The position numbers and the translations under genes are program-made. 64,000 bases of DNA from Calliopsis andreniformis (lineage: Eukaryota; Arthropoda; Insecta; Hymenoptera; Andrenidae), in contig NW_027480548.1 of NCBI RefSeq assembly GCF_051401765.1, forward strand, positions 1,054,001 to 1,118,000, read 5' to 3'. Below, in pieces: positions 1 to 40,843 of this stretch. Position 1 is the first letter of the stretch. Each line of letters begins with the position of its first letter. The notes under the pieces were generated by a model. The model was given only the letters and a program-made list of their open reading frames with translations. It did not search any database and was not told where the DNA came from.

Positions 1-2420
1 TTGAGGATTGAAGATTAGAGGATTGGGGATTGAGGATTGAAGATTGAGGATTCAGGATTGAGGATTCAGAATTGAGGTTTGAGGACTGAGGATTGAGGAT
101 TGAAGATTGAGTATTGAGGATTGAGGATTGAGGATTGAAGAATGAGGATTGAGGATTGAGGATGAGGGCTGAGGGTTGAGGATTGAGGTTTGAGGACTGA
201 GGACTCAGGATTGAGGATTGAGAATTGAGGATTGAGGATTGATGATTGAAGATTGAAGATTGGGTATTGAGGATTGAAGAATGAGGATTGAGGATTGAGG
301 ATTGAGGACTGGGGATTGAAGATTGAGTATTGAGGATTGAAGACTGACGATTGAGGATTGAGGATTGAGGATTGAGGATTGAGGATTGAGGATTGAGGAT
401 TGAAGGTTGAGTATTGAGGATTGAAGGCTGTCGATTGAGGATTGAGGATTGAGGATTGAGGATTGAGTATTGAGGATTGACGATTGAAGTTTGAGTTTTG
501 AGGATTGAGGATTGAGGATTGAGGATTGAGGATAGAGGATTGAGGATGAGGGCTGAGGGTTGAGGATTGTGGTTTGAGGACTGAGGACTGAGTATTGAGG
601 ATTGAGAATTCAGGATTGAGGATTGAGTATTAAAGATTGAGGATTGGGTATTGAGGATTGAAGAATGAGGATTGAGGATTGTGTATTGAGGACTGAGGAT
701 TGAAGATTGAGTATTCAGCATTGGAGATTGCCGACTGAGGATTGAGGATTGAGGATTGAGGATTGAGGATTGATGATTGAAGATTGAAGATTGCTTTTGA
801 GGATTGAAGAATGAGGACTGAGGATTGAGGATTGAGGATTGAGGATTGAAGAATGAGTATTGAGGATTGAAGTCTGACGATTGAGGATTGAGGATTGAGG
901 ATAGAGGATTGAGGATTGAGGATTGAGGATTGAGGATTGAGAATTGAGGATTGAGGATTGAAGATTGAGTATTGGGTATTGAGGATTGAAGAATGCGGAT
1001 TGAAAATTGAGGATTGAGGATTCAGAATTGAGGATTGAGTATTGAGGATTGAAAATTGAGGATTGGGTATTGAGGATGGAAGAATGAGGATTGAGGATTC
1101 AGGATTGAGGATTGTAGATTGAGTATTGAGGATTGAAGATTGACGATTGAGGATTCAGGACTGAGGATTGAGGACTGAATATTGGGGTCAGAGTGTTGAG
1201 GGTTGAGTGATGAGAATTGATGTTTGTGGATAGAGGTTTGATGATTGCAGATTGACTATTGAGTATTGAAAACTGTGAATTGAGGATATTCTATTGAGGA
1301 TTGAGGATTGACAACTGATTGTTGAGGACTGAGGGCCGAAGATTGAGGATTCAGGATTGAGGATTCAGAATTGAGGTTTGAGGACTGAGGATTGAGGATT
1401 GAAGATTGAGTATTGAGGATTGAAGATTGAGGATTGAAGATTGAGGGCCGAAGATTGAGGATTCAGGATTGACGATTCAGGATTGAGGATTGAGGACTGA
1501 GGATTGGGGATTGAGGAATGAGGAATGAGGATTCAGGATTGAAGATTGAGTATTGAGGATTGAAGATTGAGGGTTGAGGATTATGGATTGAAGATTGAGG
1601 ATTTGGGACGGAGGATTGAGGATTGAGGATCGAGGATAGAAGATTGAGGATTGGGGATTGAGGATTGAAGATTGAGTGTTCAGGATTGAGGATTCAGGAT
1701 TGAGGTTTGAGGACTGAGGGTTGAGGATTGAAGATTGAGTATTGAGGATTGAAGGTTGAGGATTGAGGATTGAGGATTGAGGACTGAGGATGAGGGCTGA
1801 GGGTTGAGGATTGAGGTTTGAGGACTGAGGACTGAGGATTGAGGATTGAGAGTTGAGGATTGAGGATTGAGGATTGAAGATTGAGGATTGGGTATTGAGG
1901 ATTGAAGAATGAGGATTGAGGATTGAGGATCGAAGGTTGAGTATTGAGGATTGATGATTGAGGATTGGGGACTGAGTGTTGAGGATTGAGGATTGAAGGT
2001 TGAGGATTGGGGACTGAGCGTTGAGGTTTGAGTGAAGAGAATTGATGTTTGTGGATAGAGATTTGAAGATTGCAGGTCGAGTATTGAGTATTGAAAGCCG
2101 TGAATTGATGATATTCTATTGAGGATGGAGGATTGACAACTGATTGTTGAGGACTGAGGGCTGAAGATTGAGGATTCAGGATTGAGGATTCAGGATTGAG
2201 GTTTGAGGGCTGAGGATTGAGGATTGAGGATTGAGGATTGCGGATTGAAGATTGAGGATTGAGGATTGAGGATTGAGTCTTGAGGATTGACGATGAGGGC
2301 TGAGGGTTGAGGATTGAGGGTTTGAGGACTGAGGACTGAGTGTTGAGGATTGAGAATTGAGGATTGAGGATTGACGATTGAGGATTGAAGATTGAGTATT
2401 GGGTATTGAGGATCGAAGAA
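1..2420 (+). repeat. Long-range duplication in the satellite, copy A
   Basis: This block matches 4691 to about 7125 nearly base for base, including irregular landmarks such as the 'gattagagg' near base 13. The offset is 4690 bp up to about 1890. It becomes 4697 bp where copy B has one extra heptamer. Similarity fades near 2415. The duplicated unit may extend left of the window. Such low divergence between degenerate repeats implies a recent kilobase-scale duplication rather than heptamer slippage. Confidence 0.85.
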
Positions 2421-4690
2421 TGAGGACTGAGGATTGAGGATTGAGGATTGAGGATTGAAGATTGAGTATTAAGGATTGAAGGCTGAGGGTTGAGGATTGA
2501 GGATTGAAGATTGAGGATGTGGTACTGAGGATTGTGGATTGAGGATCGAGGATTGAAGATTGAGGATTGAGGATTGAGGATTGAGGATTGAGGATTGAGT
2601 ATCGTGGATTGAAGACTGAGGATTGAGGTTTAAGGATGAGGGCCGAGGGTTGAGGATTGAGGTATGAGGACTGAGGACTGAGGATTGAGGATTGAGAATT
2701 GAGGATTGAGAATTGAGGATTAAAGATTGAGGATTGGGTATTGATTATTGGAGAATGAGTATTGAGGATTGAGGATTGAGGATTGAGGATTGAAGATTGA
2801 GTATTGAGGATTGAAGACTGACAATTGAGGATTGAGGATTGAAGACTGAGAATTGAGGATTGAGGATTGAGGATTGAAGATTGAGGATTGGGTATTGAGG
2901 ATTGAAGAATGAGGATTGAGGATTGAGGATTGAGGATTGAGGATTGAGGATTGAAGATTGAGTATTGAGGATTGAAGTTTGAGGGTTGAGGATTGAGGAT
3001 TGAAGATTGAGTATTTGGGACTGAGAAATGAGGATTGGGGATTGAGTATTGAAGATTGAGGATTGGGTATTGAGGGTTGAAGAATGAGGATTGAGGATTC
3101 AGGATTGAGGATTGAGGATTGAAGATTGAGTATTGAGAATTGAAGATTGAGGGTTGAGGATTGAGGATTGAAGATTGAGTATTGAGGATTGAAGATTGAG
3201 GATTGAGGATTGAGGATTGAGGATTGAGGATTGAAGATTGAGGATTGGGGATTGAGGATTGAAGATTGAGGACTCAGGATTGAGGATTCAGAATTGATGT
3301 CTGCGGACTGAGTATTGAGGATTGAAGATTGAGTATTGAGGATTGAGGATTGAGGATTGAAGATTGAGGATTGAGGATTGAGGATTGAGGATTGAGGATT
3401 GATGATTGAAGATTGAAAATTGCTTATTGAGGATTGAAGAATGAGGACTGAGGACTGAGGATTGAGGATTGAAGATTGAGTTTTGGGTATTGAGGTTTGA
3501 AGAATGAGGATTGAAAATTTAGGATTGAGGATTCAGAATTGAGGATTGAGGATTGAGGATTGAAGATTGAGGATTGGGTATTGAGGATTGAAGAATGAGG
3601 ATTGAGGATTGAGGATTGAGGACTGAGGGTTGAAGATTGAGTATTGAGGATTGTAGATTGGCGATTGAGGATTGAGGATTGAGGATTGAGGACTGAATAT
3701 TGGGGACAGAGTGTTGAGGGTTGAGTGATGAGAATTGATGTTTGTGGATAGAGGTTTGATGATTGCAGATTGAGTATTGAGTATTGAAAACTGTGAATTG
3801 AGGATATACTATTGAGTACTGAGGGTTGACAACTGATTGTTGAGGACTGAGGGCCGAAGTTTGAGGATACAGGATTGAGGATTCAGAATTGAGGTTTGAG
3901 GACTGAGGATTGAGGATTGAGGATTGGGTATTGAGGATTGAAGATTGAGGATTGAGGATTGACGATGAGGGCTGAGGGTTGAGGATTGAGGTTGAGGACT
4001 GAGGACTGAGGGTTGAGGATTGAGAATTGAGGATTGAGGATTGAGGATTGAAGATTGAGTATTGGGCATTGAGGATTGAAGAATGAGGATTGAGGATTGA
4101 GGATTGAGGATTGTAGATTGAGTATTGAGGATTGAAGGTTGACGATTGAGGATTGAGGATTGAGGATTGAGGACTGAATATTGGGGACAGAGTGTTGAGG
4201 GTTGAGTGATGAGAATTGATGTTTGTGGATAGAGGTTTGATGATTGCAGATTGAGTATTGAGTATTGAAAACTGTGAATTGAGGATATTCTATTGAGGAT
4301 TGAGGATTGACAACTGATTGTTGAGGACTGAGGGCCGAAGATCGAGGATTCAGGATTGAGGATTCAGAATTGAGGTTTGAGGACTGAGGATTGAGGATTG
4401 AAGATTGAGTATTGAGGATTGAAGTTTGAGGATTGAGGATTGAGGATTGAGGATTGAGGATTGAGGATGAGGGCTGAGGGTTGAGGATTGAGGTTTGAGG
4501 ACTGAGGACTGAGGATTGAGGATTGAGAATTGAGGATTGAAGATTGAGGATTTAAGATTGAAGATTCAGTATTGAGGATTGAAGATTGAGGGTTGAGGAT
4601 TATGGATTGAAGATTGAGGATTTGGGACTGATGATTGAGGATTGAGGATCGAGGATTGAAGATTGAGGATTGAGGATTGAGGATTGAGGA

Positions 4691-7125
4691 TTGAGGATTG
4701 AAGATTAGAGGATTGGGGATTGAGGATTGAAGATTGAGGATTCAGGATTGAGGATTCAGAATTGAGGTTTGAGGACTGAGGATTGAGGATTGAAGATTGA
4801 GTATTGAGGATTGAGGATTGAGGATTGAAGAATGAGGATTGAGGATTGAGGATGAGGGCTGAGGGTTGAGGATTGAGGTTTGAGGACTGAGGACTCAGGA
4901 TTGAGGATTGAGAATTGAGGATTGAGGATTGATGATTGAAGATTGAAGATTGGGTATTGAGGATTGAAGAATGAGGATTGAGGATTGAGGATTGAGGACT
5001 GGGGATTGAAGATTGAGTATTGAGGATTGAAGACTGACGATTGAGGATTGAGGATTGAGGATTGAGGATTGAGGATTGAAGATTGAGGTTTGAAGGTTGA
5101 GTATTGAGGATTGAAGGCTGTCGATTGAGGATTGAGGATTGAGGATTGAGGATTGAGTATTGAGGATTGACGATTGAAGTTTGAGTTTTGAGGATTGAGG
5201 ATTGAGGATTGAGGATTGAGGATAGAGGATTGAGGATGAGGGCTGAGGGTTGAGGATTGTGGTTTGAGGACTGAGGACTGAGTATTGAGGATTGAGAATT
5301 CAGGATTGAGGATTGAGTATTAAAGATTGAGGATTGGGTATTGAGGATTGAAGAATGAGGATTGAGGATTGTGTATTGAGGACTGAGGATTGAAGATTGA
5401 GTATTCAGCATTGGAGATTGCCGACTGAGGATTGAGGATTGAGGATTGAGGATTGAGGATTGATGATTGAAGATTGAAGATTGCTTTTGAGGATTGAAGA
5501 ATGAGGACTGAGGATTGAGGATTGAGGATTGAGGATTGAAGAATGAGTATTGAGGATTGAAGTCTGACGATTGAGGATTGAGGATTGAGGATAGAGGATT
5601 GAGGATTGAGGATTGAGGATTGAGGATTGAGAATTGAGGATTGAGGATTGAAGATTGAGTATTGGGTATTGAGGATTGAAGAATGCGGATTGAAAATTGA
5701 GGATTGAGGATTCAGAATTGAGGATTGAGTATTGAGGATTGAAAATTGAGGATTGGGTATTGAGGATGGAAGAATGAGGATTGAGGATTCAGGATTGAGG
5801 ATTGTAGATTGAGTATTGAGGATTGAAGATTGACGATTGAGGATTCAGGACTGAGGATTGAGGACTGAATATTGGGGACAGAGTGTTGAGGGTTGAGTGA
5901 TGAGAATTGATGTTTGTGGATAGAGGTTTGATGATTGCAGATTGACTATTGAGTATTGAAAACTGTGAATTGAGGATATTCTATTGAGGATTGAGGATTG
6001 ACAACTGATTGTTGAGGACTGAGGGCCGAAGATTGAGGATTCAGGATTGAGGATTCAGAATTGAGGTTTGAGGACTGAGGATTGAGGATTGAAGATTGAG
6101 TATTGAGGATTGAAGATTGAGGATTGAAGATTGAGGGCCGAAGATTGAGGATTCAGGATTGACGATTCAGGATTGAGGATTGAGGACTGAGGATTGGGGA
6201 TTGAGGATTGAGGAATGAGGATTCAGGATTGAAGATTGAGTATTGAGGATTGAAGATTGAGGGTTGAGGATTATGGATTGAAGATTGAGGATTTGGGACG
6301 GAGGATTGAGGATTGAGGATCGAGGATAGAAGATTGAGGATTGGGGATTGAGGATTGAAGATTGAGTGTTCAGGATTGAGGATTCAGGATTGAGGTTTGA
6401 GGACTGAGGGTTGAGGATTGAAGATTGAGTATTGAGGATTGAAGGTTGAGGATTGAGGATTGAGGATTGAGGACTGAGGATGAGGGCTGAGGGTTGAGGA
6501 TTGAGGTTTGAGGACTGAGGACTGAGGACTGAGGATTGAGGATTGAGAGTTGAGGATTGAGGATTGAGGATTGAAGATTGAGGATTGGGTATTGAGGATT
6601 GAAGAATGAGGATTGAGGATTGAGGATCGAAGGTTGAGTATTGAGGATTGATGATTGAGGATTGGGGACTGAGTGTTGAGGATTGAGGATTGAAGGTTGA
6701 GGATTGGGGACTGAGCGTTGAGGTTTGAGTGAAGAGAATTGATGTTTGTGGATAGAGATTTGAAGATTGCAGGTCGAGTATTGAGTATTGAAAGCTGTGA
6801 ATTGATGATATTCTATTGAGGATGGAGGATTGACAACTGATTGTTGAGGACTGAGGGCTGAAGATTGAGGATTCAGGATTGAGGATTCAGGATTGAGGTT
6901 TGAGGGCTGAGGATTGAGGATTGAGGATTGAGGATTGCGGATTGAAGATTGAGGATTAAGGATTGAGGATTGAGTCTTGAGGATTGACGATGAGGGCTGA
7001 GGGTTGAGGATTGAGGGTTTGAGGACTGAGGACTGAGTGTTGAGGATTGAGAATTGAGGATTGAGGATTGACGATTGAGGATTGACGATTGAGGATTGAA
7101 GATTGAGTATTGGGTATTGAGGATT
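4691..7125 (+). repeat. Long-range duplication in the satellite, copy B
   Basis: Partner of the block at 1-2420. Only scattered substitutions and one inserted heptamer (near 6530) separate the two. It contains two copies of the divergent landmark segment, around 5909 and 6741. Confidence 0.85.
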
Positions 7126-10100
7126 GAAGAATGAGGATTGAAAATTAAGGATTGAGGATTCAGAATTGAGGATTGAGGATTGAGGATTGAAAATTGAGGA
7201 TTGGGTATTGAGCATGGAAGAATGAGGATTGAGGATTGAGGATTGAGGATTGTAGATTGAGTATTGAGGATTGAAGATTGACGATTGAGGATTGAGGAAT
7301 GAGGATTGAGGATTGAAGATTGACTATTGAGGATTGAAGACTGACGATTGAGGATTGAGGTTTGAGGACTGATGATTGAGGATTGAGGACAGAGGATTGA
7401 ATGTTGAGGGTTGAGGATTATGGACTGAAGATTGAGGATTTCGGACTGAGGATTGAGGATTGAGGATCGAGGATTGAAAATTGAGGAATCAGTATTGAGG
7501 ATTGAGGATTGAGGATTGAAGAATGAGGATTGAAAATTGAGGATTGATGGTTGAGGATTGAAGATTGAGGATTGGCTATTGAGGATGGAAGAATGAGGAT
7601 TGAGGATCGAGGATTGAGGATTGAGGATTGAAGATTGTGTATTGAGGATTGAAGATTGACGATTGAGGGTTGAGGATTGAGGATTGAAGATTGAGGATTG
7701 GGGACTGAGTGTTGAGTGTTGAGTGATGAGAATTGATGTTTGTGGATAGGGATTTGAAGATTGCAGATTGAGTATTGCGAATTGAAAACTCTGAACTGAG
7801 GATATTCTATTGAGGATTGAGGATTGACAACTGACTGTTGAGGACTGAGGGCCGAAGACTGAGGATTCAGGATTGAGGATTCAGGATTGAGGTTTGGGGA
7901 CTGAGGATTGAGAATTGAGGATTGAGGATTGAAGATTGACGATTGAGGATTGAGGATTGAGGATTGAGGATTGGTGATTGAGGATTGAGGATTGAGGGTT
8001 GAGGATTCAAGTTTGAGTACTGAGGATTGAAGATTGAGGATTGAAGATTGAGGATTGGGGATTTAGGTTTGAAGCTTGAGGATTGGTGACTGAGTATTGA
8101 GGGTTGAGTGATTAGAATTGATGTTTGTGGATAGAGATCTGAAGATTGCAAATTGAGTAATGAGTATTGAAAACTGTGAATTGAGGATATTCTATTGAGG
8201 ATTGGGGATTGACAACTGATTGTTGAGGACTGGGGGCTGAAGCTTGAGGATTCAGGATTGTGGATTCAGGATTGAGAATTGAGGATTGAGGATTCAGGAT
8301 TGAAGATTGTGGATTCGGTACTGAGGATTGAAGGATGAGGATTGAGGATTGAGGTATTGAGGATTGAGGATTGCAGATTGAGTATTGAGGATTGAAAATT
8401 GAGGATTAAGGATTGAGGATTGAGGATTGAGGATTGAGGATAGAGGATTGAATATTGAGTATTGAGGATTGAAGATTGAGGATTGAGGATTGAGGATTGA
8501 GGATTGAGGATTGAAGATTGAGGGTTGGAGATTGAGGATTGAAGATTGAGGATTCAGGATTGAGGTTTCAGAATTGTGGTTTGAGGACTGAGGATTGAGG
8601 ATTGAAGATTGGGTATTGAGGATTCAGGATTGAGGATTCAGGTTTGAGGTTTGAGGGCTGAGGATTGAGGATTGAGGATTGAGGATTGAGGATTGTGGAT
8701 TGAGGATTGAAATTTGAGGATTAGTTATTGCGGATTGAACATTGAGGGCTGAGGATTGAGGATTGAGGATCGACGATTGGGGATTGAAGATTGAATATTG
8801 ATGATTGAAGATTGAGTATTGAGAATTGAGGATTGAGGATTGAGGATTGAAGATTGAGGATTCGGTATTGAGGATTGAAGAATGAGGACTGAGGATTGAG
8901 GATTGAGGATTGAGGATTGCAGATTGAGTATTGAGGATTGAAGGTTGAGGATTGAGGATTGAGTATTGAGGATAGAGGATTGAGGATTGAGGATTGAAGA
9001 TTGAGCATTGAGGATTGAAGATTGAGGATTGAGGATTGAGTTTTGAGGATTGAGGATTGAAGATTGAGGACTGGGGATTGAGGATTGAAGAATGAGGATT
9101 GAGGATTGAGGATTGAGGATTGAGGGTTGAAGATTGAGTATTGAGGATTGAGGACTGACGATTGAGGATTGAGGCTTGAGGATTGAGGATTGAGGATTGA
9201 GGATTGAAGATTGAGGATTGGGTATTGAGGATTGAAGAATGAGGATTGAGGATTGAGGATTGAGGATTGAGGGTTGAAGATTGAGTATTGAGGATTGTAG
9301 ACTGACGATTGAGGATTGAGGATTGAGGATTGAGGACTGAATATTGGGGACAGAGTGTTGGGGGTTGAGTGATGAGAATTGATGTTTGTGGATAGAGGTT
9401 TGATGATTGCAGATTGAGTATTGAGTATTGAAAGCTGTGAATTGAGGATATTCTAATGAGAATTGAGGATTGACAACTGATTTTTGAGGACTGAGGGCCG
9501 AAGATCGAGGATTCAGGATTGAGGATTCAGTATTGAGGTTTGAGGACTGAGGATTGAGGATTGAAGATTGAGTATTGAGGATTGAAGTTTGAGGATTGAG
9601 GATTCAGGATTGAGTATTGAGGATGAGGGCTGAGGGTTGAGGATTGTGGTTTGAGGACTGAGGACTGAGGATTGAGGACTGACAATTGAGGATTGAGGAT
9701 TGAGGATTGAAGATTGAAGATTCAGTATTGAGGATTGAAGATTGAGGGTTGAGGATTATGGATTGAAGATTGAGGATTTGGGATTGAGGATTGAAGATTG
9801 AGGACTCAGGATTGAGGATTCAGAATTGATGTCTGCGGACTGAGTATTGAGGATTGAAGATTGAGTATTGAGGATTGAGGATTGAGGATTGAAGATTGAG
9901 GATTGAGGATTGAGGATTGAGGATTGAGGATTGATGATTGAAGATTGAAAATTGCTTATTGAGGATTGAAGAATGAGGTCTGAGGATTGAGGGTTGAGGA
10001 TTGAGGATTGAAGAATGAGTATTGAGGATTGAATACTGACGATTGAGGATTGAGAATTGAGGATTGAGGATTGAGGATTGTGGATTGAGGATTGATAATT

Positions 10101-12839
10101 GAGGATTGAGGATTGACGATTGAGTATTGGGTATTGAGTTTTGAAGAATGAGGATTGAAAATTGAGGCTAGAGGATTCAGAATTGAGGATTGAGGATCGA
10201 GGATTGAAGATTGAGTATTGGGTAGTGAGGATTGAAGAATGAGGATTGAGGATTGAGGATTGAGGACTGAGGATTGAAGATTGAGTATTGAGGATTGTAG
10301 ATTGACGATTGAGGATTGAGGATTGAGGATTGAGGACTGAATATTGGGGACAGAGTGTTGAGGGTTGAGTGATGAGATTTGATGTTTGTGGATAGAGGTT
10401 TGATGATTGCAGATTGAGTATTGAGAATTGAAAACTGTGAATTGAGGATATACTATTGAGTATTGAGGATTGACAACTGATTGTTGAGGACTCAGGGCCG
10501 AAGATTGAGGATTCAGGATTAAGTATTCAGAATTGAGGTTTGAGGACTGAGGATTGAGTATTGAAGATTGAGTATTGAGGATTGAAGATTGAGGATTGAG
10601 GATGGAGGATTGAGGATTGAGGATGGACGATGAGGGCAGAGGGTTGAGGATTGAGGGTTTGAGGACTGAGGACTGAGGGTTGAGAATTGAGAATTGAGGA
10701 TTGAGGACTGAGGATTGAGGATTGAAGATTGAGTATTGGGTATTGAGGATTGAAGAATGAGGATTGAAAATTGAGGATTTAGGATTCAGAATTGAGGATT
10801 GAGGATTGAAGATTGAATATTGATGATTGATGATTGAGTATTGAGAATTGAGGATTGAGGATTGAGGATTGAAGATTGAGGATTCGGTATTGAGGATTGA
10901 AGAATGCGGATTGAGGATTGAGGATTGAGGATTGAGGATTGCAGATTGAGTATTGAGGATTGAAGATTGAGGATTGAGGGTTGAGTATTGAGGATTGAGG
11001 ATTGAGGATTGAGGATTGAAGATTGAAGATTGAGTATTGGGTATTGAGGATTGAAGAATGAGGATTGAAAATTGAGGATTGAGGATTCAGAATTGAGGAT
11101 TGAGGATTGAGGATTGAAGATTGAGGATAGGGTATTGAGGATGGAAGAATGAGGATTGAGCATTGTGGATTGAGGATTGTAGATTGAGTATTGAGGATTG
11201 AAGATTGACGATTGAGGATTGAGGATTGAGGATTGAGGACTGAATATTGGGGACAGAGTGTTGAGGGTTGAGTGATGAGAATTGATGTTTGTGGATAGAG
11301 GATTGATGATTGCAGATTGAGTATTAAGTATTGAAAACTGTGAATTGAGGATATTCTATTGAGGATTGAGGATTGACAGCTGATTGTTGAGGACTGAGGG
11401 CCGAAGATTGAGGATTCAGGATTGAGGATTCAGAATTGAGGTTTGAGGACTGAGGATTGAGGATTGAGGATTGGGTATTGAGGATTGAAGAATGAGGATT
11501 GAGGATTGAGGATTGAGGATTGAAGATTGAGTATTGAAGATTGAAGCCCGACGATTGAGGATTGAGGATTGAGGATTGAGTATTGAGGATGGAGGATTGA
11601 AGATTGAGTATTGAGGATTGAAGATTGAGGATTGAGGTTTGGGGACTGAGGATTGAGGATTGAGGATTGAGGATTGAGGATTGAGGATTGAGAATTGAAG
11701 ATTGAGTATTGAAGATTGAACACTGACGATTGAGGATTGAGTATTGAACATTGAGTATTCAGGATTGGAGATTGACGATTGAGGATTGAGGATTGAGGAT
11801 CGAGGATTGAGGAGTGAGGATTGAAGGTTGAGTATTGAGGATTGAAGATTGAGGATTGGGGACTGAGTGTTGAGGATTGAGGATTGAAGATTGAGGATTG
11901 GGTATTGAGGATTGAAGAATGAGGATTGGGGATTGAGGATTGAGGATTGGGGATGGAAGATTGAGTATTGAGGATTGAAGACTGACGATTGAGGATTGAG
12001 GATTGAGGATTGAGGATTGAGGATTGAGGATTGAGGATTGAAGATTGAGTATTGAGTATTGAAGGCTGTCGATTGAGGATTGAGGATTGAGGATTGAGTA
12101 TTGAGGATTGACGATTGAAGTTTGAGTGTTGAGGATTGAAGGTTGACGATTGAGGATTGAGGATTGAGGATTGAGGATGAGGGCTGAGGGTTGAGGATTG
12201 TGGTTTGAGGACTGAGGACTGAGGATTGAGGATTGAGAATTCAGGATTGAGGATTGAGTATTAAAGGTTGAGGATTGGGTATTGAGGATTGAAGATTGAG
12301 GATTGAGGATTGTGTATTGAGGATTGAGGATTGAAGATTGAGTATTCAGGATTGGAGATTGCCGACTGAGGATTGAGGATTGAGGATTGAGGATTGAGGA
12401 TTGGTGATTGAAGATTGAAGATTGCCTTTGAGGATTGAAGAATGAGGACTGAGGATTGAGGATTGAGGATTGAGGATTGAAGAATGAGTATTGAGGTTTG
12501 AATACTGACGATTGAGGATTGAGGATTGAGGATTGAGGATTGAGGATTGAGGATTGAGGATTGATAATTGAGGATTGAGGATTGAAGATTGAGTATTGGG
12601 TATTGAGGTTTGAAGAATGAGGATTGAAAATTGAGGATTGAGGATTCAGAATTGAGGATTACGGATTGAGGATTGAAGATTGAGGATTGGGTATTGAGGA
12701 TTGAAGAATGAGGATTGAGGATTCAGGATTGAGGATTCAGAATTGAGGTTTGAGGACTGACGATTGAGGATTGAGGATTGGGTATTGAGGATTGAAGTTT
12801 GAGGATTGAGGATTGAGGATTGAGGATTGAGGATTGAAG

Positions 12840-18455: not shown

Positions 18456-18462
18456 GGACTGA

Positions 18463-19215: not shown

Positions 19216-20139
19216 GAGAATTGAGGATTGAGTATTGAAGATTGAGTATTGGGTATTGAGGATTGAACAATGCGTATTGAAAATTGAGGATTGAGGATTC
19301 AGAATAGAGGATTGAGGATTGAGGATTGAAGATTGAGGATTGGGTATTGAGGATGGAAGAATGAGGATTGAGGATTGAGGATTGAGGACAGAGGATTGAA
19401 GATTGAGTATTGAGGATTGTAGATTGACGATTGAGGATTGAGGATTGAGGATTGAGGACTGAATATTGGGGACAGAGTGTTGAGGGTTGAGTGGTGAGGA
19501 TTGATGTTTGTGGATAGAGATTTGAAGATTGCAGGTTGGGTATTGCGTATTGAAAACTCTGAACTGACGATATTCTATTGAGGATTGAGGATTGACAACT
19601 GATTGTTGAGGACCGAGGGCCGAAGATTGAGTATTCAGGATTGGGGATTCGGAATTGAGGTTGGAGGACTGAGGATTGAGGATTGAAGATTGGGTATTGA
19701 GGTTTGAAGATTGAGGATTCAGGATTGAGGATTGAGGATTGAGGATGTGGTCTGAGGGTTGAGGATTGAGGTTTGAGGACTGAGGGTTGAGGATTGAGGT
19801 TTGAGGACTGAGGACTGAGGATTGAGGATTGAGAATTGAGGATTGAGGATTGAGGATTGAAGATTGAAGATTCAGTATTGAGAATTGAAGATTGGGGGTT
19901 GAGGATTATGGTTTGAAGATTGAGGATTTGGGACTGAGGATTGAGGATTGAGGATCGAGGATTGAAGATTGAGGATTGAGGATTGAGGATTGAGGATTGA
20001 GGATTGAAGATTAGAGGATTGGCGATTGATGATTGAAGATTGAGGATTCAGGATTGAGGATTCAGAATTGAGGTTTGAGGACTGAGGATTGAGGATTGAA
20101 GATTGAGTATTGAGGATAGAGGATTGAGGATTGAAGAAT

Positions 20140-22690
20140 GAGGATTGAGGATTGAGGATGAGGGCTGAGGGTTGAGGATTGAGGTTTGAGGACTGAGGAC
20201 TCAGGATTGAGGATTGAGAATTGAGGATTGAGGATTGATGATTGAAGATTGAAGATTGGGTATTGAGGATTGAAGAATGAGGATTGAGGATTGAGGATTG
20301 AGGATTGGGGATTGAAGATTGAGTATTGAGGATTGAAGGCTGTCGATTGAGGACTGAGGACTGAGGATTGAGGATTCAGAATTCAGGATTGAGGATTGAG
20401 TATTAAAGATTGAGGATTGGGTATTGAGGATTGAAGAATGAGGATTGAGGATTGTGTATTGAGGATTGAGGTTTGAAGATTGAGTATTCAGGATTGGAGA
20501 TTGCCGACTGAGGATTGAGGATTGAGGATTGAGGATTGAGGATTGATGATTGAAGATTGAAGATTGCCTTTGAGGATTGAAGAATGAGGACTGAGGATTA
20601 AGGATTGAGGATTGAGGATTGAAGAATGAGTATTGAGGATTGAAGTCTGACGATTGAGGATTGAGGATTGAGGATAGAGGATTGAGGATTGAGGATTGAG
20701 GATTGAGGATTGAGAATTGAGGATTGAGGATTGAAGATTGAGTATTGGGTATTGAGGATTGAAGAATGCGGATTGAAAATTGAGGATTGAGGATTCAGAA
20801 TTGAGGATTGGCGATTGAGGATTGAGGATTGAGGATTGGGTATTGAGGATGGAAGAATGAGGATTGAGGATTGAGGATTGAGGACTGAGGATTGAAGATT
20901 GAGTATTGAGGATTGAAGGCTGTCGATTGAGGACTGAGGACTGAGGATTGAGGATTGAGAATTCAGGATTGAGGATTGAGTATTAAAGATTGAGGATTGT
21001 AGATTGACGATTGAGGATTGAGGATTGAGGACTGAATATTGGGGACAGAGTGTTGAGGGTTGAGTGATGAGGTTTGATGTTTGTGGATAGAGGTTTGGTG
21101 ATTGCAGAATGAGTATTGAGTATTGAAATCTGTGAATTGAGGATATACTATTGAGTATTGAGGATTGACAACTGATTGTTGAGGACTCAGGGCCGAAGAT
21201 TGAGGATTCAGGATTGAGTATTCAGAACTGAGGTTTGAGGACTGAGGATTGAGGATTGAAGATTGAGTATTGAGGATTGAAGATTGAGGATTGAGGATTG
21301 AGGATTGAGGATTGAGGATTGACGATGAGGGCTGAGGGTCGAGGATTGAGGGTTTGAGGACTGAGGACTGAGGGTTGGGGATTGAGAAATGAGGATTGAG
21401 GATTGAGAATTGAGGATTGAAGATTGAGTATTGGGTATTGAGGATTGAAGAATGAGGATTGAAAATTGAGGATTGAGGATTCAGAATTGAGGATTGAGGA
21501 CTGAGGATTGAAGATTGAGGATTGGGTATTGAGGATGGAAGAATGAGGATTGAGGATTGAGGATTGAGGATTGTAGATTGAGTATTGAGGATTGAAGATT
21601 GACGATTGAGGATTGAGGAATGAGGATTGAGGACTGAATATTGGGGACAGAGTGTTGAGGGTTGAGTGATGAGAATTGATGTTTGTGGATAGAGGTTTGA
21701 TGATTGCAGATTGAGTATTAAGTATTGAAAACTGTGAATTGAGGATATTCTATTGAGGATTGAGGATTGACAACTGATTGTTGAGGCCTGAGGGCCGAAG
21801 ATTGAGGATTCAGGATTGAGGATTCAGAATTGAGGTTTGAGGACTGAGGATTGAGGATTGAAGATTGAGTATCGAGGATTGAAGATTGAGGATTGAGGAT
21901 TGAGGGCCGAAGATTGAGGATTCAGGATTGAGGATTCAGGATTGAGGTTTGAGGACTGAGGATTGGGGACTGAGGATTGAGGAATGAGGATTGAGGATTG
22001 AAGATTGAGTATTGAGGATTGAAGATTGAAGGTTGAGGGTTATGGATTGATGATTGAGGATTTGGGACGGAGGATTGAGGATTGAGGATCGAGGATAGAA
22101 GATTGAGGATTGGGGATTGAGGATTGAAGATTGAGTGTTCAGGGTTGAGGATTCAGGATTGAGGTTTGAGGACTGAGGCTTGAGGATTGAAGATTGAGTA
22201 TTGAGGATTGAAGGTTGAGGATTGAGGATTGAGGATTGAGGACTGAGGATGAGGGCTGAGGGTTGAGGATTGAGGTTTGAGGTCTGAGGACTGAGGATTG
22301 AGGATTGAGAGTTGAGGATTGAGGATTGAGGATTGAAGATTGAGGATTGGGTATTGAGGATTGAAGAATGAGGATTGAGGATTCAGGATTGAGGATTGAA
22401 GATTGAGTATTGAAGATTGAAGACCGACGATTGAGGATTGAGGATTGAGGATTGAGTATTGAGGATGGAGGATTGAAGATTGAGTATTGAGGATTGAAGA
22501 TTGAGGATTGAGGTTTGGGGACTGAGGATTGAGGATTGAGGATTGAAGATTGAGTATTGAGGATTGAAGACTGAGGATTGAGGATTGAGTATTGAGGATT
22601 GAGGATTGAAGATTTAGGATTGGGGATTGAGGATTGAAGATTGAGGATTCAGGATTGAGGATTCAGAATTGAGGTTTGAGGACTGAGGAT
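20140..22690 (+). repeat. Satellite duplication pair with indels, copy B
   Basis: Partner of 12840-15100. It has an extra block around 21880-22000 and lacks about 150 bp elsewhere. Boundaries are approximate because the flanks are the same heptamer sequence. Confidence 0.65.
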
Positions 22691-25600
22691 TGAGGATTGA
22701 AGATTGAGGATTGAGGATTGAGGATTGAGGATTGAGCATGAGGGCTGCGGGTTGAGGATTGAGGTTTGAGGGCTGAGGACTCAGTATTGAGGATTGAGGA
22801 TTGAGAATTGAGGATTGAGGATTGAGGATTGAAGATTGAGGATTGGGTATTGAGGATTGAAGAATGAGGATTGAGGATTGAGCATTGAGGATTGAGGATT
22901 GAAGATTGACTATTGAGGATTGAAGACTGACGATTGAGGATTGAGGTTTGAGTACTGATGATTGAGGATTGAGGATTGAGGATTGAAGGTTGAGGGTTGA
23001 GGATTATGGATTGAGGATTGAGGATTGAGGACTGAGGATTGAAGATTGAGTGTTGAGGATTGTAGATTGACGATTGAGGATTGAGGATTGAGGATTGATG
23101 ACTGAATATTGGGGACAGAGTGTTGCGGGTTGAGTGATGAGTATTGATGTTTGTCGATAGAGGTTTGATGATTGCAGATTGAGTATTGAGTATTGAAAAC
23201 TGTGAATTGAGGATATACTATTGAGTACTGAGGGTTGACAACTGATTGTTGAGGACTGAGGGCCGAAGTTTGAGGGTTCAGGATTGAGGATTCAGAATTG
23301 AGGTTTGAGGACTGAGGATTGAGGATTGAGGATTGGGTATTGAGGATTGAAGATTGAGGATTGAGGATTGACGATGAGGGCTGAGGGTTGAGGATTGAGG
23401 TTTGAGGACTGAGGACTGAGGGTTGAGTATTGAGAATTGAGGATTGAGGATTGAGGATTGAAGATTGAGTATTGGGTATTGAGGATTGAAGAATGAGGAT
23501 TGAAAATTGAGGATTGAGGATTCAGAGTTGAGGATTGAGGATTGAGGATTGAAGATTGAGGATTGGGTATTGAGGATTGAAGAATGAGGATTGAGGATTC
23601 AGGATTGAGGACTGAGGATTGAAGATTGAGTATTGAGGGTTGTAGATTGACGATTGAGGATTGAGGATTGAGGATTGAGGACTGAATATTGGGGACAGAG
23701 TGTTGAGGGTTGAGTGATGAGAATCGATGTTTGTGGATAGAGGTTTGATGATTGCAGATTGAGTATTGAGTATTGAAAACTGTGAATTGAGGATATACTA
23801 CTGAGTACTGAGTGTTGACAACTGATTGTTGAGGACTGAGGGCCGAAGTTTGAGGATTCAGGTTTGAGGATTCAGAATTGAGGTTTGAGGACTGAGGATT
23901 GAGGATTGAGGATTGGGTATTGAGGATTGAAGTTTGAGGATTGAGGATTGAGAATTGAGGATTGAGGGTGAGGGCTGAGGGTTGAGGATTGAGGTTTGAG
24001 GACTGAGGACTGAGGATTGAGGATTGAGAATTGAGGATTGAGGATTGAGGATTGCAGATTGAAGATTCAGTATTGAGGATTGAAGATTGGGGGTTGAGGA
24101 TTATGGATTGAAGATTGAGGATTTGGGACTGAGGATTGAGGATTGAGGATCGAGGATTGAAGATTGAGGATTGAGGATTGAGGATTGAGGATTGAGGATT
24201 GAAGATTAGAGGATTGGCGATTGAGGATTGAAGATTGAGGATTCAGGATTGAGGATTCAGAATTGCGGTTTGAGGACTGAGGATTGAGGATTGAAGATTG
24301 AGTATTGAGGATTGAGGATTGAGGATTGAAGAATGAGGATTGAGGATTGAGGATGAGGGCTGAGGGTTGAGGATTGAGGTTTGAGGACTGAGGACTCAGG
24401 ATTGAGGATTGGGAATTGAGGATCGAGACTTGATGATTGGAGATTGAAGATTGGGTATTGAGGATTGAAGAATGAGGATTGAGGATTGAGGATTGAGGAT
24501 TGGGGATTGAAGATTGAGTATTGAGGATTGAAGACTGACGATTGAGGATTGAGGATTGAGGATTGAGGATTGAGGATTGAGGATTGAAGGCTGTCGATTG
24601 AGGACTGAGGACTGAGGATTGAGGATTGAGAATTCAGGATTGAGGATTGAGTATTAAAGATTGAGGATTGGGTATTGAGGATTGAAAAATGAGGATTGAG
24701 GATTGTGTATTGAGTATTGAGGATTGAAGATTGAGTATTCAGGATTGGAGATTGCCGACTGAGGATTGAGGATTGAGGATTGAGGATTGAGGATTGATGA
24801 TTGAAGATTGAATATTGCCTTTGAGGATTGAAGAATGAGGACTGAGGATTGAGGATTGAGGATTGGGGATTGAAGAATGAGTATTGAGGATTGAAGTCTG
24901 ACGATTGAGGATTGAGGATTGAGGATAGAGGATTGAGGATTGAGGATTGAAGATTGAGGATTGAGAATTGAGGATTGAGGATTGAAGATTGAGTATTGGG
25001 TATTGAGGATTGAAGAATGCGGATTGAAAATTGAGGGTTGAGGATTCAGAATTGAGGATTGAGGATTGAGGATTGAAGATTGAGGATTGGGTATTGAGGA
25101 TGGAAGAATGAGGATTGAGGATTGAGGATTGAGGATTGAGGATTGTAGATTGAGTATTGAGGATTTAAGATTGACGATTGAGGGTCGAGGATTTAGGATT
25201 GAGGACTGAATATTGGGGTCAGAGTGTTGAGGGTTGAGTGATGAGAATTGATGTTTGTGGATAGAGGTTTGATGATTGCAGATTGAGTATTGAGTATTGA
25301 AAACTGTGAATGGAGGATATTCTATTGAGGATTGAGGATTGACAACTGATTGTTGAGGACTGAGGGCCGAAGATCGAGGATTCAGGATTGAGGATTCAGA
25401 ATTGAGGTTTGAGGACTGAGGATTGAGGATTGAAGATGGAGTATTGAGGATTGAAGTTTGAAGATTGAGGATTGAGGATTGAGGATTGAGGATGAGGGCT
25501 GAGGGTTGAGGATTGAGGTTTGAGGACTGAGGACTGAGGATTGAGGGTTGAGAATTGAGGATTGACGATTGAGTATTGAGGATTGAGGATTGAGGATTGA

Positions 25601-27307
25601 GGATTGAGGATTGAGGATTGAGAATTAAGGATTGAGGATTGAAGATTGATTATTCAGGATTGAATATCGAGGATTGACGATTGAGGATTGAGGATTGACG
25701 ATGAGGGCTGAGGGCTGAGGATTGAGGTTTGAGGACTGTGGACTGAGGATTGAGGATTGAGAATCGTGGATTGAGGACTGAGTATTGAAGATTGTGTATT
25801 GGGTATTGAGGATTGAAGAATGAGGATTGAAAATTGAGGATTGAGGATTCAGAATTGAGGATTGAGTATTGAGGATTGAAGATTGAGGATTGGGTATTGA
25901 GGATGGAAGAATGAGGATTGAGGATTGAGGATTGAGGATTGAGGATTGAAGATTGAGTATTGAGGATTGAAGATTGACGATTGAGGATTGAGGATTGAGG
26001 ATTGAGGATTGAATATTGGGGACTGAGTGTTGAGGGTTGAGTGATGAGCATTGATGTTTGTGGATGGAGGCTTGAAGATTGCAGATTGAGTATTGAGTAC
26101 TGAAATCTGTGAATTGAGGATATTCTATAGAGAATTGAGGATTGACAACTGATTGTTGAGGGCTGAGGGCCGAAGATTGAGGATTCAGGATTGAGGATTC
26201 AGAATTGAGGTTTGAGGACTGAGGATTGAGGGTTGAAGATTGTGTATTGAGGATTGAAGAGTGAGGATTGAGGAGTGAGGATTGAGGATTGAGGATGAGG
26301 GCTGAGGGTTGAGGATTGAGGTTTGAGGACTGAGGACTGAGGATTGAGGATTGAGACTTGAGGATTCAGGATTGAGGATTGAAGATTGAGGATTGGGTAT
26401 TGAGGATTGAAGAATGTGGATTGAGGATTGAGGGTTGAGGATTGAAGATTGAGTATTGAGGATTGAAGACTGACGATTGAGGATTGAGGATTGAGGATTG
26501 AGTATTGAGGAATGAGGATTGAAGATTGAGGATTGGGTATTGAGGATTGAAGATTGAGGGTTGAGGATTATGGATTGAAGATTGAGAATTTGGGAATGAG
26601 GAGTGAGGATTGAGGATCGAGGATTGAAGATTGAGGATTGAGGATTGATGATTGAGGATTGAGGATTGAAGATTGAGGATTGGGGATTGAGGATTGAGGA
26701 TTGAGGATTCAGGATTGAGGATTCAGAATTGAGGTTTGAGGACTGAGGATTGAGGATTGAAGATTGAGTATTGGGGATTGAAGATTGAGGATTGAGGATT
26801 GAGGATTGAGGATTGAGTATGAGGGCTGCGGGTTGAGGATTGAGGTTTGAGGACTGATGTCTCAGGATTGAGGATTGAGGGTTGAGAATTGAGGATTGAG
26901 GATTGAGGATTGAAGATTGAGGATTGGGTATTGAGGATTGAAGAATGAGGATTGAGGATTGAGCATTAAGGATTGAGGATTGAAGATTGACTATTGAGGA
27001 TTGAAGACTGACGATTGAGGATTTAGGTTTGAGGGCTGATGATAGAGGATTGAGGATTGAGGATTGAAGGTTGATGGTTGAGGATTATGGATTGAAGATT
27101 GAGGATTTGGGACTGAGGATTGAGGATTGAGGATCGAGGATTGAAAATTGAGGATTGAGGATTGAGGATTGAGGATTGAGGATTGAAGAATGAGGATTGA
27201 AGATTGAGGACTGAGGAGTCAGAATTGAGGATTGATGGTTGAGGATTGAAGATGGAGGATTGGCTATTGAGGATGGAAGAATGAGGATTGAGGATTGAGG
27301 ATTGAGA

Positions 27308-28083
27308 ATTGAAGATTGAGTATTGATAATTGAAGGTTGACTATTGAGGATTGAGGATTGAGGATTGAAGATTGAGGATTGGGGACTGAGTGTTGAGTGT
27401 TGAGTGATGGGAATTGATATTTGTGGATAGAGATTTGAAGATTGCAGATTGAGTATGGCGAATTGAAAACTCTGAACTGAGGATATTCTATTGAGGATTG
27501 AGGATTGACAACTGATTGTTGAGGACTGAGGGCCGAAGATTGAGGATTCAAGATTGAGGATTCAGGATTGAGGTTTGGGGACTGAGGATTGAGGATTGAT
27601 GATTGAGCATTGTAGATTGACGATTGAGGATTGAGGATTGAGGATTGAGGATTGGTGATTGAGGATTGAGGATTGAGGGTTGAGGATTGAAGATTGAGTA
27701 TTGAGGATTGAAGATTGAGGATTGATGATTGAGGATTGGGGATTTTGGTTTGAAGCTTGAGGATTGGGGACTGAGTATTGAGGGTTGAGTGATGAGAATT
27801 GATGTTTGTGGATAGAGATCTGAAGATTGCAAATTGAGTAATGAGTATTGAAAACTGTGAATTGAGGATATTCTATTGAGGATTGGGGATTGACAACTGA
27901 TTGTTGAGGACTGAGGGCTGAAGCTTGAGGATTCAGGTTTGAGGATTCGGGATTGAGAATTGAGGATTGAGGATTCAGGACTGAAGATTGTGGATTCGGT
28001 ACTGAGGATTGAAGAATGAGGATTGAGGATTGAGGTATTGAGGATTGAGGATTGCAGATTGAGTGTTGAGGATTGAAAATTGA
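27308..28083 (+). repeat. Satellite duplication pair, copy B
   Basis: Partner of 17680-18455, with the same two landmark copies about 390 bp apart and few differences. Confidence 0.75.
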
Positions 28084-29544
28084 GGATTGAGGATTGAGGA
28101 TTGAGGATTGAGGATTGAGGATAGAGGATTGATTATTGAGTATTGAGGATTGAAGATTGAGGATTGAGGATTGAGGATTGAGGATTGAGGATTGAGCATT
28201 GAAGATTGAGGGTTGGAGATTGAGGATTGAAGATTGAGGATTCAGGATTGAGGTTTCAGAATTGTGGTTTGAGGACTGAGGATTGAGGATTGAAGATTGG
28301 GTATTGAGGATTCAGGATTGAGGATTCAGGATTGAGGTTTGAGGGCTGAGGATTGAGGATTTAGGATTGGGGATTGAGGATTGAGGATTGAGGATTGAGG
28401 ATTGAGGATTGATGATTGAAGATTGAAAATTGCTTATTGAGGATTGAAGAATGAGGACTGAGGATTGACGATTGAGGATTGAGGATTGAAGAATGAGTAT
28501 TGAGGATTGAATACTGACGATTGAGGATTGAGGAGTGAGGATTGAGGATTGAGGATTGAGGATTGAGGATTTATAATTGAGGATTGAGGATTGAAGATTG
28601 AGTATTGGGTATTGAGGTTTGAAGAATGAGGATTGAAAATTGATGATTGAGGATTCAGGATTGAGGATTGAGGATTGAGGATTGAAGATTGAGGATTGGG
28701 TATTGAGGATTGAAGAATGAGGATTGAGGATTGAGGATTGAGGACTGAGGATTGAAGATTGAGTATTGAGGATTGTAGATTGACGATTGAGGATTGAGGA
28801 TTGAGGATTGAGGACTGAATATTGGGGACAGAGTGTTGCGGGTTGAGTGATGAGAATTGATGTTTGTGGATAGAGGTTTGATGATTGCAGATTGAGTATT
28901 GAGTATTGAAAACAGTGAATTGAGGATATACTGTTGAGTACTGAGGGTTGACTACTGATTGTTGAGGACTGAGGGCCGAAGTTTGAGGATTCAGGATTGA
29001 GGATTCAGAATTGAGGTTTGAGGACTGAGGATTGAGCATTGAGGATTGGGTATTGAGGATTGAAGATTGAGGATTGAGGATTGACGATGAGGGCTGAGGA
29101 TTGAAGATTGAGTATTGAGGATTGTAGATTGACGATTGAGGATTGAAGATTGAGGATTGGGTATTGAGGATGGAAGAATGAGGATTGAGGATTGAGGATT
29201 GAGGATTGTAGATTGAGTATTGAGGATTGAAGATTGACGATTGAGGATTGGGGATTGAGGATTGAGGACTGAATATTGGGGACAGAGTGTTGAGGGTTGA
29301 GTGATGAGAATTGATGTTTGTGGATAGAGGTTTGATGATTGCAGATTGAGTATTGAGTATTGAAAACTGTGAATTGAGGATATTCTATTGAGGATTGAGG
29401 ATTGACAACTGATTGTTGAGGACTGAGGACCGAAGATCGAGGATTCAGTATTGAGGATTCAGAATTGAGGTTTGAGGACTGAGGATTGAGGATTGAAGAT
29501 TGAGTATTGAGGATTGAAGTGTGAGGATTGAGGATTGAGGATTG

Positions 29545-30290
29545 AGGATTGAGGGTTGAGGATTATGGATTGAAGATTGAGGATTTGGGACTGAGGATTG
29601 AGGATTGAGGATCGAGGATTGAAGATTGAGGATTGAGGATTGAGGATTGAGGATTGAGGATTGAAGATTAGAGGATTGGGAATTGAGGATTGAAGATTGA
29701 GGATTCAGGATTGAGGTTTCAGAATTGAGGTTTGAGGACTGAGGATTGAGGTTTGAAGATTGAGTATTGAGGATTGAGGAATGAGGATTGAAGGATGAGG
29801 ATTGAGGATTGAGGATGAGGGCTGAGAGTTGAGGATTGAGGTTTGAGGACTGAGGACTCAGGATTGAGGATTGAGAACTGAGGATTGAGGATTGATGATT
29901 GAAGATTGAAGATTGGGTATTGAGGATTGAAGAATGAGGATTGAGGATTGAGGATTGAGGATTGGGGATTGAAGATTGAGTATTGAGGATTGGGTAGTGA
30001 GGATGGAAGAATGAGGATTGAGGATTGTGTATTGAGGATTGATGATTGAAGATTGAGTACTCAGGATTGGAGATTGCCGACTGAGGATTGAGGATTGATG
30101 ATTGAGGATTGAGGATTGATGATTGAAGATTGAAGATTGCCTTTGAGGATTGAAGAATGAGCACTGAGGATTGAGGATTGAGGATTGAGGATTGAAGTAT
30201 GAGTATTGAGGATTGAAGTCTGACGACTGAGGATTGAGGATTGAGGATAGAGGATTGAGGATTGAGGATTGAGGATTGAGGATTGAGAAC
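29545..30290 (+). repeat. Amplified satellite block, copy 4
   Basis: Same block as 16495-17240 and 18463-19215, with a few extra substitutions. It lies at the 3' side of the array, just before the region that lacks the divergent landmark segment. Confidence 0.7.
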
Positions 30291-32507
30291 TGAGGATTGA
30301 GGATTGAGGATTCAAGATTGAGGATTGGGTATTGAGGATTGAAGGTTGAGGATTGAGGATTGAGGATTGAGGATTGAGGATTGAAGATTGAGTATTGAGG
30401 ATTGAAGGCTGACGATTGAGGATTGAGGATTGAGGATTGAGTATCGAGGATTGAGGATTGAAGATTGAGAGTTCAGGATTGAAGATTGAGGATTGAGGTT
30501 TGGGGACTGAGGATTGAGGATTGAGGATTGAGGATTGAAGATTGACGATTGAGGATTGAGGATTCAGGATTGAGGATTGCTGATTGAGGATTGAGGATTG
30601 AGGGTTGAGGATTGAAGAATGAGTACTGAGGATTGAAGAATGAGGATTGAGGATTGAGGTATTGAGGATTGAGGATTGCAGATTGAGTATTGAGGATTGA
30701 AAATTGAGGATTGAAGATTGAGTATTGAGGATTGAGGATTGAGGATAGAGGATTGAATATTGAGTATTGAGTATTGAAGATTGAGGATTGAGGATTGAGG
30801 ATTGAGGATTGAAGATTGAGGATTGGGGATTGAGGATTGAAGATTGAGGATTCAGGATTGAGGTTTCAGAATTGTCGTTTGAGGACTGAGGATTGAGGAT
30901 TGAAGATTGGGTATCGAGGATTGAGGATTGAAGATTGAGGATTGAGGATTGAGGATGAGGGCTGAGGGTTGAGGATTGAGGTTTGAGGACTGAGGACTGA
31001 GGATTGAGGATTGAGAATTGAGGATTGAGGGTTGAGTATGAGGGCTGCGGGTTGAGGATTGAGGATTGAGCACTGGGGACTGAGTATTGAGGATTGAGGA
31101 TTGAGAATTGAGGATTGAGGATTGAGGATTGAAGATTGAGGATTGGGTATTGAGGATTGAGGACTGAAGATTGTATAATGATGATTGAAGATTGAGGACT
31201 GGGGAATGAGGGTTGTGGATTGAGGACCAGGACTGAGGGTTGAGTATTGATGATTGAGGTCTGAGGATCGAGGATTGAGGATTGAGAATTGAGGATTGTG
31301 GATTGAGGATTGAAGATTGAGGGTTGGGTATTGAGGATTGAAGAATGAGGATTGAGGATCGAGGATTGAGGATTGAGGAATGAAGATTGAGGGTTGAGGA
31401 TTGAGGATTGAGTATTGAAGATAGAGTATTGAGGATTGAAGATTGAGGATTGAGGATTGAGGACTGAGGATTGAGGATTGAAGATTGAGTATTGAGGATT
31501 GAAGATTGAGGATTGAGGATTGAGGATTGAGGATTGAGGATCGACGATTGAAGATTGAGTATTGAGGATTGAAGATTGAGGATTGAAGATTGAGGATTGA
31601 GGATTGAGGATTGAAGATTGAGGATTGGGGATTGAGGATTGAAGATTGAGGATTCAGGATTGAGGATTCAGAATTGAGGTTTGAGGACTGAGGATTGAGG
31701 ATTGAAGATTGGGTATTGAGGATTGAGGATTGAGGACTGAAGTTTGAGGATTGAGGATTGAGGATGAGGGCTGAGGGTTGAGGATTCAGGTTTGAGGACT
31801 GAGGACTGAGGATTGAGGAGTGAGAATTGAGGATTGAGGATTGAGGATTGAAGATTGAGGGTTGGGTATTGAGGATTGAAGAATGAGGATTGAGGATTGA
31901 GGATTGAGGATTGAGGATTGAAGATTGTTTATTGAGGACTGAGGACTGAGGATTGAGGATTGAGAATTGTGGATTGAGGATTGAGGATTGAAGATTGAGG
32001 GTTGGGTATTGAGGATTGAAGAATGAGGATTGAGGATTGAGGATTGAGGATTGAGTATTGAAGATTGTTTATTGAGGACTGAGTACTGAGGATTGAGGAT
32101 TGAGAATTGACGATTGAGGATTGAGGATTGAGGATAGAGAATTGAGGATTGAGGATTGAGGATTGAAGAATGAGGATTGGTTATTGAGGATTGAAGATTG
32201 AGGATTGAGGATTGAGGATTGAGGATTGAGGATTGAAGATTGAGTATTGAGGATTGAAGACAGACGATTGAGGATTGAGGATTGAGGATTGAGTATTGAG
32301 GATTGAGGATTGAAGTTTGAGTATTGAGGGTTGAAGATTGAGGATTGAGGATTGAGGATTGAGGATTGAGGATTGAGGATGAGGGCTGAGGGTTGAGGAT
32401 TGAGGTTTGAGGACTGAGGACTGAGGATTGAGGATTGAGAATTCAGGATTGAGGATTGAGGATTGAAGATTGAGGATTGGGTATTGAGGATGAAGAATGA
32501 GGATTGA

Positions 32508-40807: not shown

Positions 40808-40843
40808 GTTTCAAGAAACAGCCCAATTCATACTGAATTATGA

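What the first reader, a model, noticed from the sequence alone, without database searches (positions are those of the whole stretch)
1..32507. A heptamer satellite of more than 32 kb, TTGAGGA, with no family I recognise
The array fills half the window without interruption, is almost C-free on one strand, and runs off the left edge. A C-free 7-mer is telomere-like in composition, but variants are dense and arranged in long copied blocks, as in centromeric or heterochromatic satellites.
Basis: partly seen in the sequence, partly recalled or inferred. Interest (0 to 1): 0.75.

Follow-up and report, generated by a model that had tools for sequence, protein, structure and literature searches.

The report
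Heptamer satellite filling a bee genome
A seven-letter repeat, TTGAGGA, fills roughly two fifths of this 1.02-billion-base bee-like genome in long one-way arrays, and the array in the window reverses direction at an island of mobile DNA that is itself copied to many places, so this satellite seems to spread by copying large blocks and not only unit by unit.

Summary
The array is real: one uninterrupted period-7 array at 1-32507, unit TTGAGGA, 3.4% C on the + strand. It is not a local curiosity. The window's assembly (1.019 Gb) holds 4.72 million exact (TTGAGGA)3 words; the reversed control has 0. At sampled densities that is about 429-446 Mb, 42-44% of the genome, with a wide error. Of 60 contigs sampled, 41 are this array.

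84% of the window array lies in copied blocks (>=300 bp, >=95% identical); five unit-order shuffles give none. It ends at a copia LTR. A 32.6-kb island follows, bounded by inverted copia copies, then the array runs the other way. The same array|LTR junction occurs 21 times in 12 contigs: 9 converging pairs and 3 singles. Each of 6 islands read carries one A and one B array flank.

Best reading: heterochromatic satellite grown by unequal exchange plus amplification of blocks of tens of kilobases. The kind is known (Drosophila virilis 7-bp satellites, about 40%); I found no report of this unit, but my searches were narrow. Telomere not supported; centromere untested; species unnamed; read depth not available.

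The parts
1..32507 (+). TTGAGGA satellite array (type A flank of the island), continuing left to contig position 1 in all sampled stretches
   Evidence: TRF; sampling
1..1930 (+). longest copied block; second copy at 4691-6620, 99.6% identical
4691..6620 (+). second copy of the longest block
1180..1400 (+). example of the diverged signature block (about 200 bp) marked by GATATTCTATTGAGGA; 20 exact markers in the array
   Evidence: block limits approximate
32508..37405 (+). copia retrotransposon at the array edge: LTRs 32508-32705 and 37207-37405, gag-pol ORF to 36963
37406..60269 (.). island core with Polinton-like genes (double jelly roll, PLA2-like, integrase core, DNA polymerase B matches)
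56099..57978 (.). (TCATTATTA)n 9-bp tandem array inside the core
60270..64000 (-). second copia, inverted, 96.2% identical to the first; continues to window-equivalent 65118, after which the satellite runs on the - strand; its ORF is interrupted

Best explanation
A non-coding heterochromatic satellite that makes up about two fifths of a bee-like genome. Shown here: the unit, its abundance, one-way arrays, copied blocks, and a repeated island with fixed A and B flanks at which the array reverses. Inferred: growth at three scales, namely slippage or unequal exchange in near-perfect runs, local unequal exchange of 0.3-2 kb blocks, and rarer amplification of blocks of tens of kilobases that carry islands of foreign DNA along. 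Also inferred: copia copies acted as recombination sites that joined satellite to both ends of a Polinton-containing core in inverted order, and the change of direction then hinders exchange between the two sides. Effect, inferred: bulk constitutive heterochromatin, selfish or weakly selected, without a sequence-specific product.
For: 4.72 million exact 21-mers, control 0; 41 of 60 sampled contigs; 429-446 Mb by density. Copied blocks 84% versus 0 in 5 shuffles. Blocks are shared with array 0-10 and 44-54 kb to the left (74%, 49%) but with none of the two stretches across the island, the contig start, C100 or C300. Junction 21 times in 12 contigs, 9 converging pairs. In 6 of 6 islands read, one A and one B flank: bases 241-300 from the junction are 0.97-1.00 identical within a type and 0.70-0.73 between types. 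A-type array found again at 1-30 kb from three other islands, 12 of 12 pieces. Both copias share the array at the 5' side but have different sequence directly after an intact 3' LTR.
Against: No chromatin, FISH or read-depth data, so heterochromatin and true copy number are unproved. Bootstrap range of the share is wide, 331-645 Mb. Scores of A pieces (154-194) touch the top of the 20 null pieces (78-154), and most A pieces are not colinear with the window; C52 and C76 agree at 1 and 15 kb but not at 5 or 30 kb. In the third 60-base bin 8 of 15 A-A pairs fall to 0.88. Multiple contigs could partly be haplotypes.
Confidence: 0.75

Rival explanations
1. It is the functional centromere satellite, maintained for centromeric chromatin or by centromere drive.
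For: Extreme abundance and local homogenisation are usual for centromeric satellites (general knowledge); a 166-bp satellite of nucleosome-like length occurs within a few kb of it on C7.
Against: At 42-44% of the genome most of it cannot be centromere core. The 166-bp and 118-bp satellites are equal or better candidates. The signature block is not more conserved than its surroundings.
Confidence: 0.1
2. The abundance or the repeated islands are assembly artefacts (collapsed or duplicated contigs, retained haplotypes).
For: Contigs break inside arrays; read depth not available; several islands have nearly the same length (six of nine at 41.80-41.87 kb).
Against: Island lengths differ (21.4, 32.6, 37.2 and 41.80-41.87 kb), flanks differ in sequence and order at 5-30 kb, and 41 of 60 contigs spread over the size range are array.
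Confidence: 0.1
3. It is a telomeric or telomere-derived repeat.
For: G-rich, nearly C-free strand; (TTAGG)5 has 0 hits in the assembly.
Against: Arrays are internal, change strand, and match the perfect unit at only 0.85 on average. Three of three chromosome-scaffold starts read carry a 118-bp satellite instead; which end of a scaffold is terminal is not known, and telomeres may be unassembled.
Confidence: 0.02
4. The signature block is a selected protein-binding site and the satellite is kept for it.
For: 127,743 exact copies of its 16-base marker genome-wide.
Against: In 86 aligned copies its conservation (0.86-0.95 per 20 bases) is about that of its flanks (0.84-0.91), and the highest bin contains the marker used for selection.
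Confidence: 0.03

Closest known systems
Drosophila virilis 7-bp satellites 1-3 (ACAAACT, ATAAACT, ACAAATT)
   Same: 7-bp unit; given as about 40% of the genome by density gradients (PMC6922343, passages; PMC10783647, passages), close to the 42-44% here.
   Different: Unrelated unit. TAREAN recovered only about 12% in D. virilis and most arrays are missing from its assemblies. Block and island structure was not compared: the dedicated D. virilis paper was not held.
Heterochromatin of Xylocopa violacea (1.02-Gb carpenter bee assembly, PMC11589580)
   Same: Bee assembly of the same size, about 80% masked as repeats, much of it outside the chromosome scaffolds (outline and passages).
   Different: There 109/217-bp and 95-bp satellites and TTAGG telomeres, 1,300 scaffolds; here 7-, 166- and 118-bp satellites, no (TTAGG)5, 489 contigs. 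The held copy may omit small contigs, so the contig number alone decides nothing.
Short TTGAGGA runs in bacteria
   Different: Median array 35 bp and longest 336 bp among the 118; no sign of kinship.

Membership tests
Satellite DNA | long tandem arrays of one unit | tested here: met
   32.5 kb in the window, 9 of 9 samples over 1.05 Mb of C139
Satellite DNA | high copy number in the genome | tested here: met
   4.72 million exact 21-mers, control 0
Satellite DNA | non-coding | tested here: inconclusive
   long minus-strand ORFs of ILNPQSS heptads exist; their search gave 62 rows, none naming an insect
Satellite DNA | heterochromatic location | not testable with these tools
   no chromatin or cytological data
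D. virilis 7-bp satellites | unit ACAAACT or a one-base variant | tested here: not met
   unit TTGAGGA against units quoted in PMC6922343; reverse complement and rotations compared by eye
D. virilis 7-bp satellites | about 40% of the genome | tested here: met
   42-44%, bootstrap 331-645 Mb
Telomeric repeat | terminal, one orientation towards the end, few variants | tested here: not met
   internal, strand change across the island, 0.85 mean identity
Canonical insect telomere | TTAGG repeats | tested here: not met
   (TTAGG)5: 0 hits on either strand
Centromeric satellite | bound by the centromeric histone | not testable with these tools
   no profiling data
X. violacea satellites | 109- or 217-bp monomer | tested here: not met
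   periods 7, 166 and 118

The most novel reading that the evidence does not exclude
The heterochromatic arms of this genome descend from one ancestral arm. The same order recurs on many contigs: CATAGC satellite, palindromic mitochondrial-DNA island, TTGAGGA; and within TTGAGGA, A-array, copia-Polinton-copia palindrome, B-array. Blocks of 100 kb or more, perhaps whole heterochromatic arms, would then be copied between non-homologous chromosomes, and palindromic islands would mark where array direction flips and homogenisation stops. Contigs are not assigned to chromosomes here, so copying between chromosomes is a guess.
Probability: 0.3. Interest if true: 0.78.

Novelty: new member of a known kind. 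Interest (0 to 1): 0.6.

Why it matters
How a satellite comes to fill almost half a genome is an old open question. These arrays carry long landmarks (copia/Polinton islands and mitochondrial-DNA islands) with a fixed, repeated arrangement, so block amplification can be told from unit-by-unit slippage and dated. It would extend the D. virilis case to a bee-like genome in an assembly that actually contains the arrays.

Tried and rejected
Telomere reading: rejected. Coding reading: the minus-strand ILNPQSS ORFs are what a C-poor heptamer gives; their search returned 62 rows, the named ones bacterial or metagenomic and none an insect. That says little about other bees, as such ORFs are seldom annotated. 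Kinship with bacterial runs: rejected, they are short. X. violacea as source: rejected on repeat periods and telomere motif. Species name: not obtained. Hairpins: a plain array stretch folds at -0.2 and 0 kcal/mol, the signature block at -0.5 and -0.9, none better than shuffles; one non-array control gave -3.6, also no better than its shuffles. G-quadruplex: three-G motifs 0, two-G motifs cover 33% of the array; left open. Selection on the signature block: no excess conservation. A 34-mer from window 31212, unique in my samples, proved common (46,246 hits at <=1 mismatch); the listing shows only the first places and omits the window's own copy, so positions from it were not used. Two further flank words did not complete. 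COX1 copies: 8 contigs hold a diverging pair, but C89 holds two in the same direction and several contigs hold one, so pairing is not universal. Two of the 8 pairs (C11, C24) were not tested for flanks.

Full report
OBSERVATION. Tandem Repeats Finder gives one row for 1-32507: period 7, 4648.6 copies, TTGAGGA, 76% matches. C is 1,115 of 32,507 bases and the reverse-complement unit is absent from the array. GC skew is 0.80-0.86 in all 16 two-kb bins. Mean identity to the best-phased perfect repeat is 0.85 over 464 seventy-base windows. In 162,389 bases of array (the window, 13 stretches of about 9-10 kb and 1 kb of C11) there are 23,254 units of 556 kinds: TTGAGGA 9,127, TTGAAGA 2,061, TTGAGTA 1,165, CTGAGGA 848; one-base deletions 338, insertions 32.

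COPIED BLOCKS. Self-comparison shows irregular offsets and a longest block of 1,930 bp at 99.6%. Blocks of >=300 bp at >=95% cover 84% of the array; five unit-order shuffles give 0; eight other 10-kb stretches give 18-89%. Sharing is local: the window shares such blocks with array 0-10 kb (74%) and 44-54 kb (49%) to its left and none with the contig start, two stretches across the island, C100 or C300.

SIGNATURE BLOCK. A run of diverged heptamers about 200 bp long, marked by GATATTCTATTGAGGA, recurs: 20 exact markers in the window, 46 in 120 kb of other array, 127,743 in the genome. In 86 aligned copies its conservation per 20 bases is 0.86-0.95, its flanks 0.84-0.91. A second word behaves alike: 46,246 hits at <=1 mismatch.

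GENOME SHARE. The window is C139:1054001-1118000 of an assembly of 1,019,246,659 bases in 489 contigs; (TTGAGGA)3 occurs 2,377,976 times on + and 2,338,040 on -, reversed control 0. At 0.0106-0.0110 words per base in sampled array this is 429-446 Mb (42-44%); bootstrap over the 41 small samples alone, 331-645 Mb. Second approach: 200-base samples of 60 contigs gave 41 TTGAGGA, 5 of a 166-bp satellite, 14 other; contig lengths then give about 397 Mb outside C1-C12, a crude figure because unsampled contigs take the class of the nearest sampled one. All eight of C13-C18, C20 and C25, read at 1 kb, have period 166; a 22-base marker of it has 1,469,364 hits at <=2 mismatches, at least about 244 Mb if one per monomer. 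C1-C12 at one point each: only C11 gave TTGAGGA. C1, C2 and C3 begin with a 118-bp satellite.

ISLAND. A copia LTR begins at 32508. After a 22.9-kb core a second copia lies inverted, 96.2% identical, ending at window-equivalent 65118, and the satellite continues on the other strand. The LTRs of the left copia are 97.5% identical over 199 bases. Of seven core ORFs scanned, four have Pfam matches: double jelly roll, PLA2-like, integrase core, DNA polymerase B, a Polinton-like set by my knowledge of those elements. Both copias share the array at the 5' side but run into different sequence right after the 3' LTR, with no matching target duplication on the array side. Array homology between the two sides of the window's island ends after about 200-240 bases. 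Ectopic recombination through copia copies would explain this; that is inference.

REPEATED ISLANDS. The array|LTR 33-mer (<=1 mismatch) occurs 21 times, all listed, in 12 contigs. Nine contigs hold a converging pair, starts apart by 41,871 (C52), 41,836 (C59), 37,158 (C76), 41,804 (C135), 41,873 (C138), 32,610 (C139, the window), 21,399 (C141), 41,862 (C222) and 41,798 (C251). Singles on C171 and C240 lie within 21 kb of the contig start; the single on C434 lies at 120.9 kb of a contig whose length I did not fetch. Flanks were read for 6 of 9 pairs. Each has one A and one B flank. Bases 241-300 from the junction are 0.97-1.00 identical within a type and 0.70-0.73 between types; in the third bin 8 of 15 A-A pairs fall to 0.88. 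Pieces of 200 bases at nominal 1, 5, 15 and 30 kb on the A side of C52, C76 and C222 match the window's A array with scores 154-194 (12 of 12); 20 pieces from other arrays score 78-154; 4 of 4 B pieces match B (151-188) better than A (84-102). Two A pieces, at 1 kb on C52 and C76, also score 164-165 on B, at the stretch next to the junction that both sides share. Most pieces are not colinear with the window: only one, C76 at 5 kb, falls near its expected place. C52 and C76 agree with each other at 1 and 15 kb (99.5%) but not at 5 or 30 kb. So a block of the island plus some 15 kb or more was copied and later rearranged.

SECOND ISLAND TYPE. COX1-like mitochondrial DNA (96 scored of 308 candidates) forms diverging pairs 38-74 kb apart on eight contigs: C11, C24, C86, C111, C119, C153, C154, C227; C89 has two copies in one direction and others are single. 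In 6 of 6 pairs tested, one side is TTGAGGA and the other a CATAGC satellite, in the same relative order. With the A/B islands this is the basis of the bolder reading.

INTERPRETATION. Shown: unit, abundance, direction, copied blocks, repeated islands. Inferred: heterochromatin, growth by exchange and block amplification, copia as recombination site, direction change as a barrier. Untested: centromere function, chromosome placement, read depth. Array stretches fold no better than shuffles.

COMPARISON. The nearest kind is the D. virilis 7-bp satellites, about 40% of that genome by density gradient, though TAREAN recovered about 12% (PMC6922343, passages; PMC10783647, passages). The X. violacea genome paper (outline and passages) describes a bee assembly of the same size with other satellites; it cites Hoshiba and Imai 1993, not read by me, for growth of heterochromatin in bees. 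On print: six of 14 spellings of two tandem units gave one unrelated paper; listings for bee satellites were seen as listings only, and supplements were not searched. So I can say only that I found no report of this satellite.

Noticed in passing
G000 contigs C276, C304, C364, C374, C381: COX1-like mitochondrial DNA repeats in tandem at about 11.61 kb, many copies per contig: a nuclear mitochondrial megasatellite or an assembly of concatemers.
   Followed up: no
G000 contigs C86, C111, C119, C153, C154, C227 (also C11, C24 untested): Diverging pairs of mitochondrial DNA 38-74 kb apart sit between TTGAGGA and a CATAGC satellite, in the same relative order in 6 of 6 tested.
   Followed up: partly
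G000 C13-C18, C20, C25 and others (L157-L164): A 166-bp satellite with at least about 1.47 million marker hits, roughly a quarter of the genome.
   Followed up: partly
Starts of G000 C1, C2, C3 (L138-L140): A 118-bp satellite begins all three chromosome-like scaffolds read.
   Followed up: no
window 37406-60269: Polinton-like provirus remnants between two inverted copia copies.
   Followed up: partly
window 56099-57978: (TCATTATTA)n array, 208.8 copies, 98% matches, open in several frames on both strands.
   Followed up: no
L001-L118: Perfect TTGAGGA runs of 4 or more units occur in many bacterial phyla (at least 118 stretches, capped), an unexplained preference for the same heptamer, median array 35 bp.
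   Followed up: partly
G000 whole assembly: No (TTAGG)5 at all, so telomeres are unassembled or of another motif.
   Followed up: no
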